Shown piece by piece: positions 7,687 to 60,380 of a stretch of 64,000 bases of DNA. Numbering within the stretch: the first letter of the stretch is position 1; the number at the start of each line of letters is the position of its first letter. Location: NCBI GenBank assembly GCA_029978705.1, contig JAPOIY010000001.1, forward strand, positions 62,001 to 126,000, given 5' to 3'. Origin of the DNA: Actinomycetota bacterium (GTDB lineage Bacteria > Actinomycetota > Actinomycetes > S36-B12 > GCA-2699445). The notes under the pieces were generated by a model. That model saw nothing but the letters and a program-made list of their open reading frames with translations, was not told the origin of the DNA and searched no databases. A program made the translations under genes and the position numbers.

Positions 7687-9765
7687 GTGACCCGGACTGT
7701 TCTCGTGCGCGCCGCGACCGCTGCTGTCGCTGTGGGCTTGGCGATGCCGGCTTCCCCTGCGGTCGGCGGCACTGCCGCGGGTGGTGCGCTCGGCACCAAC
7801 CTCGCGGCGGTCACGTACTACGACGGTGCCACGGTCTTCGCCAACATCGTGGAGCAAGCCGGGGACTGGGTGCCGCAGGACGACGGACGGCCGTGGGGTG
7901 AGGGGCCCCCTCTGGACCTGCGCGACGACGGGTGGCCGCGGCGCCTGGCCGGTGGCCAATTCGGGAGCCTGGTGCTCGCGGACAGCCACTACCCCTCCGG
8001 GCGCTACCCGGTGTCGTGGTCGGGGACGGGGCGCTTCGACATAGGAGGGACGGTGTTCCGCGGCACCGACGGCACCGGGGAGATCACCCTCGACGGCACC
8101 TCAACGGTCGTGCTGAATCTGCGGCAGACCGACCCTGACAACCCGGTCCACGGCATCCAGGTCCGGGTCCCCGGAGCCGATCCGACGGCCCGCTTCACCG
8201 ACGACTACCTGCGGCAACTCGCGCCGTACCGGGCGTTGCGTTTCATGGACTGGCAGCGCACCAACAGCACGCTCGCGGATCCGGAGCGTTCCTTCACGTG
8301 CGCGAACCGCACCCCCGGCTCCTACTACTCGCAGGGAACGTCACGCGGGGCGTCCGTCCCGGCGATGGTGGCGCTCGCGAACGCCACCGGCACGGACCCC
8401 TGGTTCACCATTCCGCACGAAGCCTCCCTGGACTGGGTGCGGTGCCACGCGCGAGTGGTCGCCGATACGCTCGCGCCCGGCCTCGTGCCGCGCTACGAGT
8501 TCAGCAATGAGACGTGGAACCCCGCCTTCCGCGCGTTCCACGACCTCAGCGACGAGGCCGCGCGCCTGGGGCTGGGAGGCGGGGACCGGTTCCTCGGGTT
8601 GCAGCAACTCGTCGGCCGACGGCATGTCGCGGTCATGGACGTGGTGGGCGAGGAGATGGGCGGGCGACCCTTCCTGCGGGTGCTGGCCGGGCAGGCGGCC
8701 AACCCGTGGGTCCTCGAACAGCGCCTCGCGGTGGCGGGGGACCGCACCGACGAGATCGCCATCGCGCCCTACCTGGGAGTGGGCGGTGACCCGTTCGATC
8801 CGGCCGAGGCGCGGCGGGTCGCCGCGTGGTCCTCCGACGAGCTCATGGCGCGGCTGCGCCAGCAGCAGGCCCGTGAAGTGGACGCGTGGGTCGGTGAGCA
8901 TGTGCAGCTTGCGGGCCGGTCCGGCAAGCGCCTGGTCGCCTACGAAGGGGGGCAGCACCTGGCCGGGGATCCCGACAACGCCTCCCTCACGGACCTGTTC
9001 ACCGCGGCCAACCGATCGTCTGCGATGGGGGACCTCTACCGGACCTACCTGACGCGGTGGGCCGACGCGACGGACGGTGCCCTGTTCATGCACTACACCG
9101 ATGTGGGACCGGCCAGCCGTTACGGCTCATGGGGGGCCCTGGAGGCCTCCGACCAGGACCCCGGGAGCAGCCCCAAGTACCGGGCGCTCGCGGACTTCGC
9201 GGGGGTCCCTCCGACGGCAACACCGGTCGCTCCCGCACCGGGGCGAGCGGGCATCAGCGTGGCTGGTGGTGACGTGTTCACCCGGCACCGTCGTGTCCTC
9301 GTGGCCATCGACTGGCCGGCGGCGGCCGAGTCGGTGCGCCTGAGCAACACCCGGCGCTTCCGGGCCGCGCGGGAGTATCCGCGCGGGGCTCGGGTGCGGT
9401 GGCGGCTGCCGGCATCCGGGCGGGTGGTGGTGCGGGCCCGCTTCCGGGGTCCGGGAGTCGACGCGGCCCGCACCGTCACCGACGCGATCACGGTGGACCG
9501 GGAGGCGCCCCGGCTACACCAGGTGGCTGTCTCCCGATCCAGCGGTGGGCCGCTGCGCCTCCGCAGCAGGGCCGCCGACCGGGTGAGCGGGGTGATGACG
9601 GTGACGGTGGCCGGCGACCGCGCGGGCACGGGGAGCGCCACGGTGGCGTACCGGCCCCGGGTGCGGGTCGCGCCCGCAGGCCGGCTGGGGGCGCGTGTGT
9701 TCGTGCGGGTCACCGACCGCGCCGGCAACGTCTCGGTCTGGCGCGCGGTGCCGGTCCGGAGGTGA
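7687..9765 (+). CDS. Secreted glycoside-hydrolase-like protein with C-terminal beta-sandwich domain
   Basis: A 692-residue exported protein. A signal peptide covers about residues 1-29. The central part looks like a TIM-barrel glycosidase of the clan GH-A type: the motif YEFSNETWN puts a candidate acid/base Glu at 275 after an Asn, and VAYEGGQHL offers a candidate nucleophile Glu at 420. Similar SNE(V/T)WN motifs occur in poorly characterised cellulose-binding-type proteins. From about residue 505 the sequence becomes beta-rich and Arg-rich, like an Ig or fibronectin-like module. The GTG start at 7687 is the one that yields the signal peptide. The substrate is unknown and the assignment is by motif only. 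Confidence 0.65.
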   Translation: MTRTVLVRAATAAVAVGLAMPASPAVGGTAAGGALGTNLAAVTYYDGATVFANIVEQAGDWVPQDDGRPWGEGPPLDLRDDGWPRRLAGGQFGSLVLADSHYPSGRYPVSWSGTGRFDIGGTVFRGTDGTGEITLDGTSTVVLNLRQTDPDNPVHGIQVRVPGADPTARFTDDYLRQLAPYRALRFMDWQRTNSTLADPERSFTCANRTPGSYYSQGTSRGASVPAMVALANATGTDPWFTIPHEASLDWVRCHARVVADTLAPGLVPRYEFSNETWNPAFRAFHDLSDEAARLGLGGGDRFLGLQQLVGRRHVAVMDVVGEEMGGRPFLRVLAGQAANPWVLEQRLAVAGDRTDEIAIAPYLGVGGDPFDPAEARRVAAWSSDELMARLRQQQAREVDAWVGEHVQLAGRSGKRLVAYEGGQHLAGDPDNASLTDLFTAANRSSAMGDLYRTYLTRWADATDGALFMHYTDVGPASRYGSWGALEASDQDPGSSPKYRALADFAGVPPTATPVAPAPGRAGISVAGGDVFTRHRRVLVAIDWPAAAESVRLSNTRRFRAAREYPRGARVRWRLPASGRVVVRARFRGPGVDAARTVTDAITVDREAPRLHQVAVSRSSGGPLRLRSRAADRVSGVMTVTVAGDRAGTGSATVAYRPRVRVAPAGRLGARVFVRVTDRAGNVSVWRAVPVRR

Positions 9766-27198: not shown

Positions 27199-27873
27199 TC
27201 AGCGGGCGCGGCGCTGCAGCCGTTCGTGGTCGATGAGCACGACCGACCGGGACTCCAGCCGGATCCAGCCCCGGGAGGCGAAGTCGGCGAGGGCCTTGTT
27301 GACGGTCTCGCGAGAAGCCCCCACGAGTTGCGCCAACTCCTCCTGCGTCATGTCGTGGGTGACGCTGACGCCCCCCTCCACCGGCACGCCGAAACGTTCG
27401 CCCAGGTCGAGCAGGGCCTTGGCCACCCGCCCGGGGACATCGGAGAACACGAGGTCCGACATGGCCTCATTGGTGCGGCGCAGTCGCTGGGCGAGCGCGG
27501 TCAGCAGAGCCTCGGCCACCTCGGGGCGTCCCGCCAGCCAGGGGCGCAGGGCATCGTGACCCACCTCGCGGGCGACCACGTCGGTGAGGGCCGTGGCCGT
27601 GGCAGCCCGAGGCCCGGGGTCGAAGAGGGAGAGTTCGCCGATCATCTCGCCCGGGCCGATGATGGCCAGCAGGGCATCCCGGCCGTCGGCCGACGCGGTC
27701 CCGAGCTTGATCTTGCCTTCCTCGATCACGTACAGGCGGTCGCCCGGATCCCCCTCCCGGAACAGGATTCCGCCCTTCGCGAGGCGCACCACGTTCGTGG
27801 CGGCCCGCAGGGCGGCAGCGGCCTCCGGATCCAGCGCAGCGAAAAGAGGTGCCTGCATGAGCACGTCGTCCAC
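27199..27873 (-). CDS. crp: Crp/Fnr-family regulator (Crp/GlxR orthologue)
   Basis: A 224-residue global regulator. The cyclic-nucleotide-binding domain covers residues 1-120 with the phosphate-binding cassette GEMIGELSLFDPGPRAATATA, then a long C-helix and a winged helix-turn-helix (MTQEELAQLVGASRETVNKALADF, about residues 165-190). It is the actinobacterial cAMP-responsive Crp/GlxR type by sequence and by its position beside nth. GTG 27873 follows GAAAGGA. A palindromic Crp-like site lies 36 bases upstream and suggests autoregulation. Confidence 0.92.
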   Translation of the reverse strand: MDDVLMQAPLFAALDPEAAAALRAATNVVRLAKGGILFREGDPGDRLYVIEEGKIKLGTASADGRDALLAIIGPGEMIGELSLFDPGPRAATATALTDVVAREVGHDALRPWLAGRPEVAEALLTALAQRLRRTNEAMSDLVFSDVPGRVAKALLDLGERFGVPVEGGVSVTHDMTQEELAQLVGASRETVNKALADFASRGWIRLESRSVVLIDHERLQRRAR

Positions 27874-28010: not shown

Positions 28011-28559
28011 TCAACGACTGGGCAACCGCTCGTTCAGGGCAGTCAGGGCGAGGGCGGGTTGCTCCCGGTACCGCGCGATCAGCTCGCCCGTCACGTGGTC
28101 GATGCGGGCATGCAGTTCCCGGCGGTAGTCGCTGAGCCGGAGCTCGGCCTCGCGCAACTGCTCGACCAGGTGGACGCGGGCCGCCGGCTCGGCGGGGATC
28201 ATCTGCTGCCACAACTGCGCCAGGTCGGGCAGCGGGGGTAGCCCTTCGGCGGACGAGACACTCAGGGCGGCGATGCGTCGATGCGCCGAGCGCGAGTCCA
28301 CCAGTACCGCGGCGAGGCCCTCGTTGACCGATACCGCGTCGCCCTTGTCGATGAGGTCGATCCGCGCCTGGATGATGCGGCGCCAGTAGGAGACGCGGGA
28401 TTCCTCGTCGGACAGCCCGGCGCGGCGGTTGCGCAAGTCGGTCAGGTCGATGTCGTCGAAGCGGGGGTCGCGCTGCGGCGGCGGCTGCTTGCGGGCCGTG
28501 CGGCTGGCGCGCTGCGGCGGCAGCACCATCCGGTCCACGTCCATCTGACTCACTCCCAT
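28011..28559 (-). CDS. RsiG-like anti-sigma factor with c-di-GMP-binding motifs
   Basis: A 182-residue, largely helical, soluble protein. Residues 53-68 carry E53-x3-S57-x2-R60-x3-Q64-x3-D68, an exact match to the E(X)3S(X)2R(X)3Q(X)3D signature by which Streptomyces RsiG binds c-di-GMP. A second copy lies at 139-154 (E139, S143, R146, H150, D154) with His for Gln. The two copies sit in separate predicted helices, the RsiG arrangement. RsiG with c-di-GMP sequesters the sigma factor WhiG. The N-terminal 30 residues are basic and Pro/Gln-rich. No whiG or cyclase gene is in the window. The gene lies between crp and nth and is divergent from nth. Family assignment rests on the motifs. Confidence 0.75.
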   Translation of the reverse strand: MGVSQMDVDRMVLPPQRASRTARKQPPPQRDPRFDDIDLTDLRNRRAGLSDEESRVSYWRRIIQARIDLIDKGDAVSVNEGLAAVLVDSRSAHRRIAALSVSSAEGLPPLPDLAQLWQQMIPAEPAARVHLVEQLREAELRLSDYRRELHARIDHVTGELIARYREQPALALTALNERLPSR

Positions 28560-28643
28560 CCCGGATCACCGTGCGTGACCAAGAGAGGCATCGCCCCGGT
28601 CACGCTCTGTATTGAGGTCGTTAGCCCGAACGGGTGATGCCCG

Positions 28644-28655: not shown

Positions 28656-29357
28656 ATGCCCGACGCCGCCCCGCCGGAGTCCGCGCTGGCCCAGAAGCGG
28701 CGCTGTCGCCGGATCATGCGCCGATTGGCGGACTTCTACCCGGACGCCCGCTGCGAACTCGACTTCACGACGCCGTTCCAGTTGCTGCAGGCAACGGTGC
28801 TCTCGGCGCAGTGCACGGACGTGCGGGTCAATCAGGTGACCCCACAGCTCTTCGCGCGCTGGCCCGAGCCGGCGGATCTTGCCGGAGTCGACCAGGCGGA
28901 GCTGGAGGAGGTGATCCGGCCGACGGGGTTCTTCCGGGCCAAGGCGTCCAGCCTGCTCGGGTTGTCCCAGGCCATCGTGACCGACCACGACGGCCAGGTG
29001 CCGGACCGGCTCGACGCACTCGTCACGTTACCCGGGGGGGGGCGCAAGACCGCCAACGTCGTGCTGGGGAACGCGTTCGGGGTGCCGGGAATCACCGTCG
29101 ACACGCATGTCGGACGGCTGAGCCGACGCCTGGGGTTCACGGACCAGGAGGACCCGGTGAAGGTCGAGGCCGACCTCATGCGGCTGTGGCCGCGCAGCGA
29201 GTGGACCCACTGGTCGCACGTCCTGATCTTCCACGGGCGGCGCTGCTGTCATTCCCGACGGCCGGCCTGCGGCGTCTGCCCGGTGCGGCAGTGGTGCCCC
29301 TCGGCCGGCCTGGGACCGTTGGACCCCGCGGTCGCGGAGCGGCTGCTGAAGGACTGA
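28656..29357 (+). CDS. nth: Endonuclease III
   Basis: A 233-residue base-excision repair glycosylase/AP lyase for oxidised pyrimidines. The helix-hairpin-helix is at about 125-132 (LPGGGRKT), with catalytic Lys131 and Asp149 (VDTHV) at the family's 18-residue spacing, and the C-terminal [4Fe-4S] ligands are C-x6-C-x2-C-x5-C (CHSRRPACGVCPVRQWC). The hairpin usually reads LPGVGRKTA; here a run of nine G bases (29034-29042) encodes three glycines. It is predicted leaderless. It stands beside crp, as in other actinobacteria. Confidence 0.94.
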   Translation: MPDAAPPESALAQKRRCRRIMRRLADFYPDARCELDFTTPFQLLQATVLSAQCTDVRVNQVTPQLFARWPEPADLAGVDQAELEEVIRPTGFFRAKASSLLGLSQAIVTDHDGQVPDRLDALVTLPGGGRKTANVVLGNAFGVPGITVDTHVGRLSRRLGFTDQEDPVKVEADLMRLWPRSEWTHWSHVLIFHGRRCCHSRRPACGVCPVRQWCPSAGLGPLDPAVAERLLKD

Positions 29358-37971: not shown

Positions 37972-38970
37972 GTGAGGATCCAGGTGCCCGATATCGCCGT
38001 GCAGGTCGCGGACCGCGAGCTGGCGCAGATCGTGCGGGAACTGGTGGCCCGCGCCCGGTTGAGTGCCTCCAGCACCGTGACCTCGGACGTCGACCTGCTC
38101 GTGACCGATCACACCCCGCCTGCCGGGTCTTCCCTTCCGACGGTCCTGGTGGCCCGGGGGGCCGACGCCGAGGTGTGGCGCGGGGCGGCGGGAACCGGGG
38201 TCGAGCAGGTCGTGGTCCTGCCCGACGGCGCTCCGCTGCTGCTGAAGCGGCTCCGGAGCCGCCGACCCCGGCCACCCGGGATCCTCATCCGGGTGATCGG
38301 GTGCCGCGGGGGGTGCGGGGCCACGACGGTGAGCGTGGGTCTGGCGGTCGCGCTCTCCGCGACGGTGCCGACCACCCTGATCGACGCCGACCCGGCCGGG
38401 GGTGGGCTGGATGTGGCGGTGGGAGTCGACGGTGAGCGGGGCCTGCGCTGGCCTGAGCTGAGTGGGCTGCGGGGGATGGTGCCGGTGGGGTCCCTGGTGT
38501 CGCGCCTACCGCGGGCGGCGGAGGTGCCGATTCTGTCCCACGGGCGTGACGTCGCCGAGATGGCCGATGCGTGGGCGGCCGTCACCGGGTCCCTGCTGTC
38601 CGGCGGCGGGGTGGTGGTGGCTGACGTCCCGCGGTACCAGGTGACGTCGCTGGCGTGTCCGGGCGACGGAATCGACATCCTCGTCGTCCCGCCGGACGTG
38701 GTGGCGATCGCGACGGCCCGCCGCCTCATCGCCGCGGGACACGTGGCCAGCCGTCCGGTTCTGGCGCTCCGGCGGACCCGCGGGACCGTCCCCCCGGCGG
38801 TGGTGGCCGAGGAACTGCCGGGTCGCGCCACCGTGCTGGTGCCCGACGCCGCCGGCGTCCGCGCAGCCGCCGACTTCGGGGACCTGGCCGAGGCCGTGAC
38901 GGCCCGGGGATTCCGCGGCGCCTGCCGTCGCCTGGCGACCGTGGCCGTGGGCGGGGGGTCCGATGACTGA
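37972..38970 (+). CDS. ssdA: SsdA/CpaE-like protein of the tad locus
   Basis: A 332-residue MinD/ParA-fold protein heading the tad operon. The deviant Walker A is degraded: RGGCGATTVS at 112-121, with Arg for the signature Lys and Ala for the P-loop Lys. TLIDADPAGGGLDVAVG keeps the following acidic motif. TadZ/CpaE and actinobacterial Ssd proteins share such atypical loops; they localise the pilus machine or act on septum placement. An N-terminal receiver-like domain covers about residues 1-95. GTG 37972 has GGGAGG about 20 bases upstream. It overlaps tadA by 8 bases. Confidence 0.82.
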   Translation: MRIQVPDIAVQVADRELAQIVRELVARARLSASSTVTSDVDLLVTDHTPPAGSSLPTVLVARGADAEVWRGAAGTGVEQVVVLPDGAPLLLKRLRSRRPRPPGILIRVIGCRGGCGATTVSVGLAVALSATVPTTLIDADPAGGGLDVAVGVDGERGLRWPELSGLRGMVPVGSLVSRLPRAAEVPILSHGRDVAEMADAWAAVTGSLLSGGGVVVADVPRYQVTSLACPGDGIDILVVPPDVVAIATARRLIAAGHVASRPVLALRRTRGTVPPAVVAEELPGRATVLVPDAAGVRAAADFGDLAEAVTARGFRGACRRLATVAVGGGSDD

Positions 38971-40105
38971 TCTGCTGGACCGCGTGCGCACGTGGTTGGT
39001 GGCGGCCGAGACCGACCCGAGTGGCGCGGCCATCCGGCATGCTCTCGACGATCTCGGCGTGGTGGCCGACGGGACCGAGGTGGCTCGGCTCACGCGGACG
39101 CTGCGCGCCGACCTGGTCGGCGCGGGCCGACTCCAGCCCCTGTTGGAGATTCCGGGGGTCACCGATGTCCTGGTCAACGGACCCGACCAGGTGTGGGTGG
39201 ACAGCGGTGCCGGGTTGCGCCGTTCCGACTGCGGGTTCGCCGGGGACCAGGAGGTCCGCCAGTTGGCGCAACGGCTCGCAGCCCAGGCGGGTCGCCGGCT
39301 GGACGACGCCTGTCCGTTCGTGGATGCCCGGCTACCCGGCGGGGTGCGCCTGCATGCGGCGCTGCCCCCCCTGTCGTGGCCCGGCACCCTCATCAGTCTG
39401 CGGATCCCGGCGCAACGGTCGCTGGACCTCGCGGCACTGATCGAGGCCGGGACCGTGAGCCGGGCGGGGGCAGCCTGGCTGGCGGCCCTCGTCGCCAGCC
39501 GTTGCGGCTACCTGGTCACGGGCGCCACCGGGTCGGGCAAGACGACGGTGCTGCGCAGCCTGCTGGAACTCGTGCCCGCCGATGAGCGCATCGTCGCCCT
39601 CGAGGAGTCCGCCGAACTGCAGCCCCGCCATCCCCATTTCGTGCGCCTGGAGGCGCGGGCCGCCAATGCCGAGGACCGGGGAGCGGTGCCGCTGGTGCAC
39701 CTCATGCGGCAGGCGATGCGGATGCGGCCTGACCGCATCGTCGTCGGGGAGGTCCGGGGGCCCGAGGTCACCGCCCTGCTCAACGCCATGAACACCGGGC
39801 ATGAGGGCAGTTGCGGCACGGTCCACGCGAACGCACCCCGGGCGGTGCCCGCCCGCCTGGAGGCGCTGAGCCTGGCGGCGGGGATGGACCGGGCGGCGGT
39901 GCACTCGCAGCTGGCCGCGGGGCTCGACGCGGTCCTGCATGTCGCCCGGGAACGCGGGGGTCGCCGCGTCATCACCGAACTGGGCGTGTGTGCGGGCGCC
40001 GACCCGGTGCACGTCGTGCCCCTGCTCACGTTCGGCACCGGCCGGCCGCGCCTGCACCTGCCGCACCATCCGGTCGCGCGCCGTCTGATGGCGGTCCTGC
40101 CGTGA
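38963..40105 (+). CDS. tadA: TadA/CpaF secretion ATPase
   Basis: A 380-residue hexameric ATPase of the type II/IV secretion superfamily that powers assembly of Tad (Flp) pili. Walker A is G187-ATGSGKTT, followed by the Asp-box region (VALEESAEL), the Walker B region (RPDRIVVGEVRGPE), and the His-box. ATG 38963 lies within the end of the ssdA gene (8-base overlap), and its stop overlaps tadB. Confidence 0.92.
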   Translation: MTDLLDRVRTWLVAAETDPSGAAIRHALDDLGVVADGTEVARLTRTLRADLVGAGRLQPLLEIPGVTDVLVNGPDQVWVDSGAGLRRSDCGFAGDQEVRQLAQRLAAQAGRRLDDACPFVDARLPGGVRLHAALPPLSWPGTLISLRIPAQRSLDLAALIEAGTVSRAGAAWLAALVASRCGYLVTGATGSGKTTVLRSLLELVPADERIVALEESAELQPRHPHFVRLEARAANAEDRGAVPLVHLMRQAMRMRPDRIVVGEVRGPEVTALLNAMNTGHEGSCGTVHANAPRAVPARLEALSLAAGMDRAAVHSQLAAGLDAVLHVARERGGRRVITELGVCAGADPVHVVPLLTFGTGRPRLHLPHHPVARRLMAVLP

Positions 40106-40728
40106 CCTGGTGGTGGGTCGGGGCGGCACTGGTCCTGGTGCCATCCCCCCGCGCCGCGACGCGCGGGGGCGCGGGCCGGCGGCTGCCGCACCGAATCGGT
40201 CGGGCCGCGACGGCGGACGCCACCATCGCGTGGACCCTGGCTCTGGTGGGAGAACTGCGCGCGGGGGCGGATGTCCAGGGAGCCCTGTCGCGTTGCAGTT
40301 CCCTGCACGGCGTGGGCGGTCGCGCGGCGCGGGCGGCTCGGATCGGCGGGGACATTCCCGCGGCGCTGCGCCAGGACGCCCACGGGTCGGCGTTGCTGGC
40401 GTCGGTGGCCGCGGCCTGGACCCTGGCGGGGCAGTCGGGATCCGGGCTGGCTGACGTCCTGGAGAACCTGGCGGACGGGTACCGGCGCAGCGTGGCCGTC
40501 AAGGCAGCTCTCGCCGTCGAGATGGCGGGCCCGCGGGCGACCGCGCGGTTGATGAGCCTGCTGCCCGCGGTCGGGGTCGGTTTGGCCATGCTCCTGGGCG
40601 CGGACCCGGTGCGGTGGTTCGTGTCGTCGGTGCCCGGGCTGCTGTGCCTCACCGCGGGGGTCCTGCTCAATGTCGCCGGCTACTCGTGGATCGGGGGGAT
40701 CGTGCGCGGTGTCGAGGCGGATCTGTGA
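40102..40728 (+). CDS. tadB: TadB-like pilus platform protein
   Basis: A 208-residue inner-membrane protein with the T2SSF domain: helices at the start, a cytoplasmic four-helix region containing AAWTLAGQSGSGLADVLENLADGYR, and two C-terminal helices. With TadC it forms the platform for pilin polymerisation. It is short compared with TadB of Gram-negative bacteria, as usual in actinobacteria. GTG 40102 overlaps the tadA stop (GTGA). Confidence 0.87.
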   Translation: MTWWWVGAALVLVPSPRAATRGGAGRRLPHRIGRAATADATIAWTLALVGELRAGADVQGALSRCSSLHGVGGRAARAARIGGDIPAALRQDAHGSALLASVAAAWTLAGQSGSGLADVLENLADGYRRSVAVKAALAVEMAGPRATARLMSLLPAVGVGLAMLLGADPVRWFVSSVPGLLCLTAGVLLNVAGYSWIGGIVRGVEADL

Positions 40729-41411
40729 GCTGGTGGCTGCTGACCGCGGCGCTGCTGCTCCTGCCCCGCCGCCCCCCGCGGGCCGCTCGCCGGATCGCCC
40801 GCTCCCGACGGGGGCCGCTGCCGTTGAACGGCGTGGGGGCCCTCATCGGGATGCTGGCCTCGGTGATCCTCATGCCTCTCCCCTGGTCCGCGCTCGCCGC
40901 CGTCGTCGTGGGTGGGGCGGGCTGGCGGTGGCTGCCGAGGTCCTTCAGCTCCGATCAGGACCGGGCCGAACTCGCGCTCGCGCGGGCCCTCCCGGATGCC
41001 GTGGACCTGCTCGGGGCGGTGCTGCGCGTGGGGTTGTCCGACGGGGAGGCCCTGCTGCTGGTCGCGGGGGCGATCGACGGGCCCCTGCGCCACCACTTGA
41101 CGGTGGTGGGTCGACACCGGGCGCTGGGAGCCGCGCCGGAACGGGCCTGGCGGGCGGTCGCCGACGTCCCCGCCCTCGCCGAGTTGGCGCGAGCCATGAC
41201 ACGTCACGCGGCGACGGGATCCCCGGTGGCGGCGGTACTGGACCGGGTCGCGGCCGACGCCCGGCGGGACTACCACTCCCGCGCCCAGATGGCCGCCCGT
41301 TCGGCCGCCGTGCGCGCCGTCATCCCGCTGGCGGTCTGTTTCCTGCCCGCGTTCGTCCTGCTCGGTGTCGTCCCGATCGTGGCGTCCCTGGTGTCCGATC
41401 TGTCGTTCTGA
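40725..41411 (+). CDS. tadC: TadC-like pilus platform protein
   Basis: A 228-residue membrane protein with a T2SSF domain (LARALPDAVDLLGAVLRVGLSDGEALLLV and AELARAMTRHAATGSPVAAVLDRVA) and two C-terminal helices. It is the TadB partner in the platform. GTG 40725 overlaps the tadB stop (GTGA). It is followed by 124 bases with no gene before the pilin gene. Confidence 0.87.
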   Translation: MSWWLLTAALLLLPRRPPRAARRIARSRRGPLPLNGVGALIGMLASVILMPLPWSALAAVVVGGAGWRWLPRSFSSDQDRAELALARALPDAVDLLGAVLRVGLSDGEALLLVAGAIDGPLRHHLTVVGRHRALGAAPERAWRAVADVPALAELARAMTRHAATGSPVAAVLDRVAADARRDYHSRAQMAARSAAVRAVIPLAVCFLPAFVLLGVVPIVASLVSDLSF

Positions 41412-58780: not shown

Positions 58781-58828
58781 AGCGACGGGCCCACCCTTGG
58801 CGAGTCACTTGCCGTCGCTCCGGCCGCG

Positions 58829-58834
58829 TACAGT
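58829..58834 (+). promoter_or_regulatory. -10 of the TAP-like lipoprotein gene
   Basis: TACAGT gives a leader of about 16 bases with a CCGGAGGG ribosome site at 58843-58850. Confidence 0.42.
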
Positions 58835-58856
58835 CGGGGCAACCGGAGGGACGGGG

Positions 58857-60380
58857 ATGGGTGCAGCGACAACATGGCGCCGGGTCGGCCCGGTGGTGCT
58901 CGTCGTAGCCCTGGCGGGATGCGCCGGCACCACCCCCTCTCCGCCACCCGCCGCGACGGAGCCGGTCCCGACGCAACAGGGCCTGGCGGCCTACTACGGG
59001 CAGCAGTTGCAGTGGCGGGAATGCGAAGGCTCGTTCGAGTGCGCCGATCTGACCGTGCCCCTGGACTACGCCGACCCGGCGGCGGGGGACACCAGCGTTG
59101 CCGTGCTGCGCAGCCCGGGGGAGAAACCCCTCGGCCCCCTCGTGATCAACCCCGGAGGTCCCGGCGGGAGCGGCGTCGACTGGGCCCAGGCGGCCCAACA
59201 GGTCCTGCCGGGAGACGTCACCGACGCCTACCAGGTGGTGGGCTTCGACCCGCGCGGGGTCGGGCGCAGTCACCCCGTGGACTGCGTCACCGACCGCCAG
59301 CTCGACCGGTGGATCGCCCAGGACGGCGACCCCACCACCACCGCCGAGGAGGACCAGTTCCTGCGGGTGGCCGCCCGCTTCGCGAAGCGGTGCGCCCGGG
59401 GGTCGGGAGAGATACTGGGTCACGTCGGCACCGACTCGGTCGTGTCCGACCTCGACATCCTGCGCAGCGCCCTGGGCACTGACCGCCTCAACTACCTCGG
59501 CTTCTCCTACGGGACCACGATCGGGGCCCGGTACGCCGACCAGTTCGGTCCGACGACGGGGCGCATGGTGCTCGACGGGGCCCTCCCGCCCCAACTGACC
59601 AGTGCCGAGGTCGGACTCGGCCAGGCCAAGGGGTTCGAGGACGCCCTGCGCCGGTACGTGGCCGACTGCCAGCGCAGCGACGACTGTCCCGTGGCGGGGG
59701 CCGACGTCGACGCCGGTGTGGCCCGCATCCAGCAGTTCCTCGCCGACGTGTCCGAGAATCCCCTGCCCACCGACTCCGGACGGGGCCTGAACGAGTCGCT
59801 GGCGCTGGGCGCCATCCTCTACCACCTGTACTTCCCGTTCCTGGGGGACTGGCAGTCGCTCTCCGACGAGCTGAAGGACGCATTCGCCGGCGACGGCACC
59901 GCGCTCCTGGACTTCTACGAGTCGCGCCTCGAACGCGACCCCGACGGGCGCTACCGCAACAACTCCCAGGAGGCGTTCTTCGCCGTCAACTGCCTCGACA
60001 CCGACGAACGTCCGACGGTTGCCGATCTACGCGCCCGCGCCGAGGACTGGGCTCAAGAGGCCCCCACGTTCGGCCGATATCTAGCGTGGTCGGAAGCAGC
60101 ATGCTCGCGCTGGCCCGTCGCGGCCGAGGGGGGACCGCGTCAGGTCACGGCGTCCGAGGCCGGGCCCATCCTGGTCATCGGCAACACCCATGACCCGGCG
60201 ACGCCGTTGCCGTGGGCACAGCTGGTGACCGATCACATGGCAGACGCACACCTCGTGATCTGGGATTCGGATGGACATACGGCGTACGGGAACGGCTCGG
60301 ACTGCGTCGACGACGCGGTCGGGGCCTACCTGCTCGACGGCGCTCTCCCGGCGGACAACCCGCTGCTGTGTCCCGCCTAG
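58857..60380 (+). CDS. TAP-like alpha/beta-hydrolase lipoprotein
   Basis: A 507-residue exported hydrolase with a lipobox ALAGC at the end of its signal peptide, so it is probably membrane-anchored. The oxyanion loop INPGGPGGSG, nucleophile Ser in LGFSYGTTIG, Asp in GNTHDPATPL and His in DSDGHTAYG are intact, with a C-terminal TAP-like domain. ATG 58857 follows CCGGAGGG; an in-frame start 60 bases upstream would spoil the signal peptide. It is a paralogue of the secreted protein at 45903. Confidence 0.88.
   Translation: MGAATTWRRVGPVVLVVALAGCAGTTPSPPPAATEPVPTQQGLAAYYGQQLQWRECEGSFECADLTVPLDYADPAAGDTSVAVLRSPGEKPLGPLVINPGGPGGSGVDWAQAAQQVLPGDVTDAYQVVGFDPRGVGRSHPVDCVTDRQLDRWIAQDGDPTTTAEEDQFLRVAARFAKRCARGSGEILGHVGTDSVVSDLDILRSALGTDRLNYLGFSYGTTIGARYADQFGPTTGRMVLDGALPPQLTSAEVGLGQAKGFEDALRRYVADCQRSDDCPVAGADVDAGVARIQQFLADVSENPLPTDSGRGLNESLALGAILYHLYFPFLGDWQSLSDELKDAFAGDGTALLDFYESRLERDPDGRYRNNSQEAFFAVNCLDTDERPTVADLRARAEDWAQEAPTFGRYLAWSEAACSRWPVAAEGGPRQVTASEAGPILVIGNTHDPATPLPWAQLVTDHMADAHLVIWDSDGHTAYGNGSDCVDDAVGAYLLDGALPADNPLLCPA

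What the first reader, a model, noticed from the sequence alone, without database searches (positions are those of the whole stretch)
28011..28559. RsiG-like protein carries an exact c-di-GMP-binding signature and a second, modified copy
Residues 53-68 match E(X)3S(X)2R(X)3Q(X)3D exactly; residues 139-154 match with Gln replaced by His. Streptomyces RsiG uses two such helices to bind a c-di-GMP dimer and hold the sigma factor WhiG. An orthologue beside crp would bring c-di-GMP control into this genome, and a Tad pilus locus lies 9 kb away; in Rubrobacter the same switch has been linked to type IV pilus genes. The His variant could alter ligand stoichiometry.
Basis: partly seen in the sequence, partly recalled or inferred. 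Interest (0 to 1): 0.72.

Follow-up and report, generated by a model that had tools for sequence, protein, structure and literature searches.

The report
Second RsiG anti-sigma tied to pili
The gene encodes a conserved sister version of RsiG, a protein that uses the messenger c-di-GMP to switch off a sigma factor; in relatives it sits beside that kind of sigma factor or inside type IV pilus gene clusters and carries the sigma's own type of promoter, which points to a self-limiting pilus switch that has not been described.

Summary
The 182-aa minus-strand ORF matches Pfam RsiG and carries E53/S57/R60/Q64/D68 and E139/S143/R146/H150/D154 on two long predicted helices. The interpretation needs changing in three ways. 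(1) It is not the RsiG orthologue: the same genome has a canonical RsiG (RsiG1) on another contig. The window gene belongs to a separate paralogue group, here called RsiG2 (RsiG1/RsiG2 split 100/100). (2) His150 is not a modification: His, or Phe, is the rule at that place in RsiG2, and a published His-type RsiG binds c-di-GMP. (3) The likely target is the true type IV pilus cluster, not the Tad locus 9 kb away. RsiG2 sits between crp and nth in 63 of 80 named loci, inside pilT-rsiG2-pilB clusters in 11, and beside a FliA/WhiG-type sigma gene in 4. In one third of named loci rsiG2 is preceded by a sigma-28-type promoter (TCAA-N16-GNCGAT), at essentially one spacing and never at that spacing before neighbouring genes. 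The same element precedes pilT in the order. Best reading: RsiG2 is a second c-di-GMP-armed anti-sigma of WhiG/FliA, made under that sigma's own control, limiting type IV pilus transcription. No binding was measured.

The parts
28011..28559 (-). rsiG2: twin-motif RsiG-family protein, 182 aa (start possibly at 28544, 177 aa)
   Evidence: AlphaFold2 model pLDDT 85, helices 39-72 and 125-166
28356..28403 (-). codons of c-di-GMP signature 1 (residues 53-68, E/S/R/Q/D, helix 39-72)
   Evidence: sequence; conservation
28098..28145 (-). codons of c-di-GMP signature 2 (residues 139-154, E/S/R/H/D, helix 125-166)
   Evidence: sequence; His in 47/57 and Phe in 10/57 relatives
28588..28615 (-). sigma-28/WhiG-type promoter-like element TCAAT-N15-GGCGAT(GC) before rsiG2, two mismatches to TCAAG-N15-GCCGAT
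   Evidence: P 0.017 alone; position and sequence class shared with relatives
27199..27873 (-). crp-family regulator, downstream of and co-oriented with rsiG2 (137 bp gap)
   Evidence: Pfam cNMP_binding + HTH_Crp_2; neighbour conserved
28656..29357 (+). nth (endonuclease III), divergent from rsiG2; conserved neighbour, probably not part of the mechanism
   Evidence: Pfam HhH-GPD; synteny

Best explanation
The gene is rsiG2, a conserved paralogue of the c-di-GMP-dependent anti-sigma factor RsiG. The protein folds on itself as an antiparallel coiled coil of helices 39-72 and 125-166. It should hold a c-di-GMP dimer with its two signatures, and only in that state bind a WhiG/FliA-type sigma factor through its loop and C-terminal tail, which are specific to RsiG2. 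In this genome the partner is most likely the single WhiG on contig C57, shared with RsiG1. WhiG appears to drive type IV pilus genes (pilT and following) and rsiG2 itself. High c-di-GMP would then arm RsiG2 and shut off WhiG, pili and rsiG2: a self-limiting loop. Shown here: family membership, paralogy, motif conservation, gene neighbourhoods, promoter elements. Inferred: c-di-GMP binding, sigma binding, direction of control.
For: Pfam RsiG 60 bits. RsiG proteins fill the top four places of the PDB fold search, probability 0.96-1.00 but E 0.03-0.2. Separate paralogue group. RsiG2 inside pilT-rsiG2-pilB clusters in 11 named Nocardioides/Aeromicrobium/Sporichthya loci, with a FliA-type sigma 4-8 kb from the same cluster in four Sporichthya-type genomes. 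RsiG2 immediately before a FliA-type sigma in 4 named loci and G474, divergent beside it in G284, with a 4-bp overlap in Nocardioides caldifontis. The WhiG residues that contact c-di-GMP (K57, G61, R62 in S. venezuelae) are kept as K(Y/F)V(A/V)GR in own WhiG and in all RsiG2-linked sigmas examined, whereas the FliA of RsiG-less genome G072 reads RYVVSR. RsiG-positive genomes have a WhiG/FliA over cut-off in 57 of 60, RsiG-less order members in 2 of 11. Promoter element before rsiG2 in 26/79 loci at spacing 16, 0 at that spacing before eight control genes. pilT 9/19 at spacing 16 and 0 at ten others; 13 exact sites in 125 kb of Nocardioides/Aeromicrobium pilus loci against 0-1 at other spacings. 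The only TAAA-N14-16-GCCGATNA in the 2.9-Mb genome lies between pilB and pilT.
Against: No binding or expression data. Own rsiG2 promoter element has two mismatches and would be weak evidence alone (P 0.017). About two thirds of named RsiG2 loci lack the strict element, including the close relatives L141 and L142. The genome-wide count of the relaxed element does not separate WhiG-bearing from WhiG-less genomes. The crp-nth location says nothing about pili. The Asp of signature 2 is lost in 11 of 57 relatives. No structure of a complex could be modelled, and the fold match is weak by E-value.
Confidence: 0.72

Rival explanations
1. RsiG2 is an anti-sigma for a different sigma factor (for example the SigF/SigB-like sigma on contig C154), and the WhiG-type promoter only shows that WhiG controls its production.
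For: The loop and tail that would meet the sigma differ from RsiG1 (invariant R95, W117, R163, P168). The own genome already has RsiG1 for WhiG. Other sigma-70 family genes are present.
Against: Every sigma found beside RsiG2 is FliA/WhiG type (213-237 bits to TIGR02479). In genomes with RsiG2 only, that sigma is the candidate partner. K-x3-G-R is kept in those sigmas.
Confidence: 0.12
2. RsiG2 is a c-di-GMP-binding coiled-coil adaptor that no longer binds sigma and acts on the pilus motors (PilT/PilB) or on Crp directly.
For: Lies between pilT and pilB genes in 11 named loci and beside crp in most others. The c-di-GMP signatures are more conserved than the loop.
Against: Operon-like pairing with FliA-type sigma genes, including a 4-bp overlap. 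WhiG-type promoters on the pilus genes. Co-occurrence with WhiG/FliA.
Confidence: 0.1
3. RsiG2 is a functional duplicate of RsiG1 with no distinct role.
For: Same signatures and predicted coiled coil; both present in many genomes.
Against: Long separate branch of 1.53 changes per site, 100/100. Conserved own location over many families. WhiG-type promoter before rsiG2 and not before rsiG1 (0/39 strict). Genomes with only one or the other.
Confidence: 0.06

Closest known systems
RsiG of Streptomyces venezuelae (PDB 6pfj, 6pfv; PMC8325347)
   Same: Twin E/S/R/Q/D signatures on two helices of an intramolecular antiparallel coiled coil; a WhiG partner in the genome; Pfam PF22802
   Different: RsiG2 is a paralogue, not the orthologue; about 30% identity to RsiG1 of the same genome; His/Phe at the stacking position of signature 2; different loop and tail; crp-nth, pilus or sigma location; WhiG-type promoter in front
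Single-motif RsiG of Rubrobacter radiotolerans (PDB 7lq2-7lq4), proposed switch for type IV pili (PMC8325347)
   Same: Link to type IV pilus transcription through sigma-28/WhiG-type promoters; a GGDEF gene near the pilus genes
   Different: Rubrobacter RsiG is a small homodimer with one motif; RsiG2 has two motifs and lies physically inside pilus clusters of some relatives; feedback through an own WhiG-type promoter was not reported for it in the sections read
FlgM, anti-sigma of flagellar FliA (from general knowledge)
   Same: Works like it: an anti-sigma of a sigma-28 factor that is itself transcribed under that sigma
   Different: Different fold and signal: RsiG2 carries c-di-GMP signatures, FlgM is relieved by export. 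No membership is claimed
Second RsiG copy of Acidothermus cellulolyticus (mentioned in PMC8325347)
   Same: Probably a member of RsiG2: an Acidothermus MAG (L158) has RsiG2 at crp-nth
   Different: Published only as one second copy among 134 genomes; no group, location, promoter or role was described in the text read

Membership tests
RsiG family (PF22802) | Profile match over the curated cut-off | tested here: met
   60 bits against 27, two stretches
[quoted passage not shown]
   Residues 53-68 and 139-154 on predicted helices 39-72 and 125-166
RsiG family (PF22802) | RsiG fold | tested here: inconclusive
   The four best PDB fold matches are all RsiG, probability 0.96-1.00, but E 0.03-0.2 and TM 0.33-0.53
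RsiG family (PF22802) | Binds a c-di-GMP dimer | not testable with these tools
   Residues conserved; binding not measured
RsiG family (PF22802) | Binds a WhiG-type sigma present in the genome | not testable with these tools
   WhiG present with the K-x3-G-R contact residues; binding not measured
Orthologue of Streptomyces RsiG (RsiG1) | The closest RsiG of the genome and within the RsiG1 group | tested here: not met
   RsiG1 on contig C88 matches PF22802 better (72 bits against 41); the window protein is in the other group at 100/100
Type IV pilus switch as in Rubrobacter | WhiG-type promoters before type IV pilus genes | tested here: met
   pilB-pilT gap in the own genome and 9 of 19 pilT upstream regions at one spacing
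Type IV pilus switch as in Rubrobacter | Single motif, homodimer | tested here: not met
   Two motifs in one chain

The most novel reading that the evidence does not exclude
RsiG2 is a dedicated, autoregulated c-di-GMP-armed anti-sigma of type IV pili: WhiG/FliA makes its own c-di-GMP-dependent inhibitor, and genomes such as this one run two RsiG proteins on one WhiG, giving two c-di-GMP thresholds. In the crp-nth lineage rsiG2 may also be transcribed with crp, coupling c-di-GMP to cyclic-nucleotide control.
Probability: 0.4. Interest if true: 0.75.

Novelty: new variant of a known kind. Interest (0 to 1): 0.64.

Why it matters
The RsiG-WhiG pair was described as the only sigma/anti-sigma complex targeted by c-di-GMP, with one RsiG per genome in all but one of 134 cases. 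Here a second, separate branch is found over many mostly uncultured actinobacterial families. In cultured Nocardioides and in Aeromicrobium it lies within the pilus operons that the sigma would drive. That makes the proposed pilus role of this switch testable in strains that can be grown, and adds a feedback loop not known for RsiG.

Tried and rejected
Orthology to Streptomyces RsiG: rejected. His150 as an altered ligand site: rejected as special (and PMC8325347). Control of the Tad locus: no WhiG-type element upstream at up to two mismatches. The exact element at window 60053 lies inside an ORF (58797-60380) and was set aside. Genome-wide counts of the promoter element: uninformative, because the relaxed pattern is about as common in WhiG-less genomes; only position upstream of particular genes, with spacing and neighbour-gene controls, was used. 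WhiG's own upstream region (0/30) and rsiG1 upstream (0/39) lack the strict element. pilT2 upstream: 0/8 in a strict scan, although three genome hits lie 20-220 bp before pilT2, so not claimed. The first genome-contig scan with the single protein found nothing. Consensus of actinobacterial FliA promoters in open papers: not found in the three papers looked up.

Full report
WHAT IS THERE. The ORF at 28011-28559 lies on the minus strand and encodes 182 aa. Pfam identifies it as RsiG (PF22802, 60 bits, two stretches). S. venezuelae RsiG is the best solved relative by sequence (6pfj, E 5.7e-5). An AlphaFold2 model from 57 relatives (pLDDT 85) puts them on two long helices, 39-72 and 125-166. The four best PDB fold matches are RsiG chains, though with weak E-values.

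IT IS A PARALOGUE. The genome (2.91 Mb, 156 contigs, complete by estimate) has a second RsiG on contig C88 with a better profile score. Members of the same family of genomes carry orthologues of the window protein at 52-54% identity, and in several the C88-type protein too, at about 30% to the query. In a tree of 80 proteins the two groups are separated by one branch with support 100/100 and length 1.53. I call them RsiG1 (canonical, includes Streptomyces) and RsiG2 (window). The tree is unrooted. The published survey found a second copy in only one of 134 genomes, Acidothermus cellulolyticus (PMC8325347). Here an Acidothermus MAG has RsiG2 at the crp-nth locus (L158).

SIGNATURES. In 57 RsiG2 sequences, signature 1 is E 57, S 56, R 57, Q 50/H 6, D 57. 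Signature 2 is E 51, S 51/T 6, R 57, H 47/F 10, D 46. His150 is therefore the normal state. In 20 RsiG1 sequences the position in signature 2 is Q 16/H 4. The published text places the common Gln-to-His change in the first motif; in my sample it is mainly in the second. A His-type RsiG from Conexibacter woesei binds c-di-GMP (Kd 25 uM, 1.7 uM with WhiG; PMC8325347).

PLACES. Among 80 named RsiG2 loci, 65 have crp or nth beside it (63 both), 4 have a FliA/WhiG-type sigma gene beside it, and 11 have pilT-rsiG2-pilB. The order RidA-NUDIX-MBL-crp-rsiG2-nth-NUDIX is kept across many families, with rsiG2 upstream of and co-oriented with crp. In Nocardioides sp. GY 10113 the Pfam matches are PilM, T2SSE, RsiG, MshEN-T2SSE (PilB), T2SSE and T2SSF (PilC) in this order, with rsiG2 overlapping the preceding ORF by 4 bp. 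In Nocardioides caldifontis rsiG2 (L217 7893-8459) overlaps the sigma gene (8456-9184) by 4 bp (sigma regions 2, 3 and 4 by Pfam). In four Sporichthya-type genomes the sigma gene is 4-8 kb from rsiG2, near the same pilus cluster.

PARTNER. Own WhiG is at G000:C57:71832-72509, 280 bits to TIGR02479. Of 60 genomes with RsiG, 57 have a WhiG/FliA over cut-off, against 2 of 11 without RsiG in the same order. The three WhiG residues reported to touch c-di-GMP (K57, G61, R62) are kept in own WhiG and in every RsiG2-linked sigma examined (KYVAGR or KFVVGR), but read RYVVSR in the FliA of RsiG-less G072.

PROMOTERS. The published WhiG consensus is TAAA / GCCGATAA (PMC8325347). The only TAAA-N14-16-GCCGATNA in the whole genome lies in the gap between pilB and pilT on contig C81, in front of pilT. 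The corresponding region of relatives shows TCAAG-N15-GCCGAT with at most one mismatch in 17 of 19 (windows of 650 nt, one with spacing 14). A strict form (TCAA-N16-G[ACG]CGAT) occurs before 9 of 19 pilT genes and at none of ten other spacings. The same strict element precedes rsiG2 in 26 of 79 named loci at spacing 16 (5 at spacing 15; single cases at 14 and 17) and occurs at spacing 16 before none of crp, nth, MBL, NUDIX1, NUDIX2, RidA, NhaA or Acs in the same loci. Pilus loci of Nocardioides/Aeromicrobium hold 13 exact sites in 125 kb, against 0-1 at other spacings. Several lie directly before pilM, pilB or pilT. The own rsiG2 has TCAAT-N15-GGCGAT 56 nt before the annotated start (two mismatches, P 0.017 in shuffles). 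These sites are not independent across related genomes, but the spacing and neighbour-gene controls share that relatedness.

MECHANISM. From established knowledge of RsiG, c-di-GMP-loaded RsiG holds WhiG inactive. With the evidence above the most likely circuit is: WhiG/FliA drives pilus genes and rsiG2; c-di-GMP arms RsiG2; RsiG2 then holds WhiG. PilB carries an MshEN domain, and a PAS-GGDEF gene lies about 2 kb beyond pilC on C81, so c-di-GMP may act on the pilus at two levels. Ligand binding, sigma binding and the sign of the control are inferred.

LIMITS. The MAG-based sample is uneven. Two thirds of RsiG2 loci lack the strict element. Genome-wide counts of the element are not informative. 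No complex could be modelled. Literature searches found no description of this paralogue group or of RsiG in Nocardioides pilus clusters, but only open-licence papers are held.

Noticed in passing
L048 (G016:C92) and L118 (G189:C1, single-contig genome): RsiG2 at the crp-nth locus with broken signatures (for example EETRVAYWTRIIRQRLD in L048): possible natural versions that no longer need c-di-GMP.
   Followed up: partly
L099 (G017:C184), L100 (G018:C7), also G015:C9: Extra, strongly diverged RsiG2-like copies away from crp-nth in genomes that already have RsiG1 and RsiG2.
   Followed up: no
G000:C81 (L273 8298-10109, L274 2478-4142): PAS-GGDEF protein near pilB-pilT-pilC, and PilB with an MshEN domain: further c-di-GMP inputs to the pilus.
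   Followed up: partly
G000:C154 (L135, L275): SigF-like sigma gene, two GGDEF matches and a second pilT gene on one contig; one-mismatch WhiG-type element just before that pilT (L275 5142, minus).
   Followed up: partly
window 28544-28559: A second ATG (codon 6) has a better ribosome-binding site (GGGAG) than the first; the start may be misplaced by five codons.
   Followed up: partly
L178, L188, L193, L199: Record titles (Mycobacterium sp., Bifidobacterium breve, Acidobacteria bacterium) do not fit the gene content; probably misnamed MAGs.
   Followed up: no
A1 and A2 alignments, signature positions: The Gln-to-His exchange is mainly in the second signature here, while PMC8325347 places it in the first.
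   Followed up: partly
window 37972-41411: Tad-type secretion/pilus locus (TadA by PF00437, likely CpaE/TadB/TadC neighbours).
   Followed up: partly
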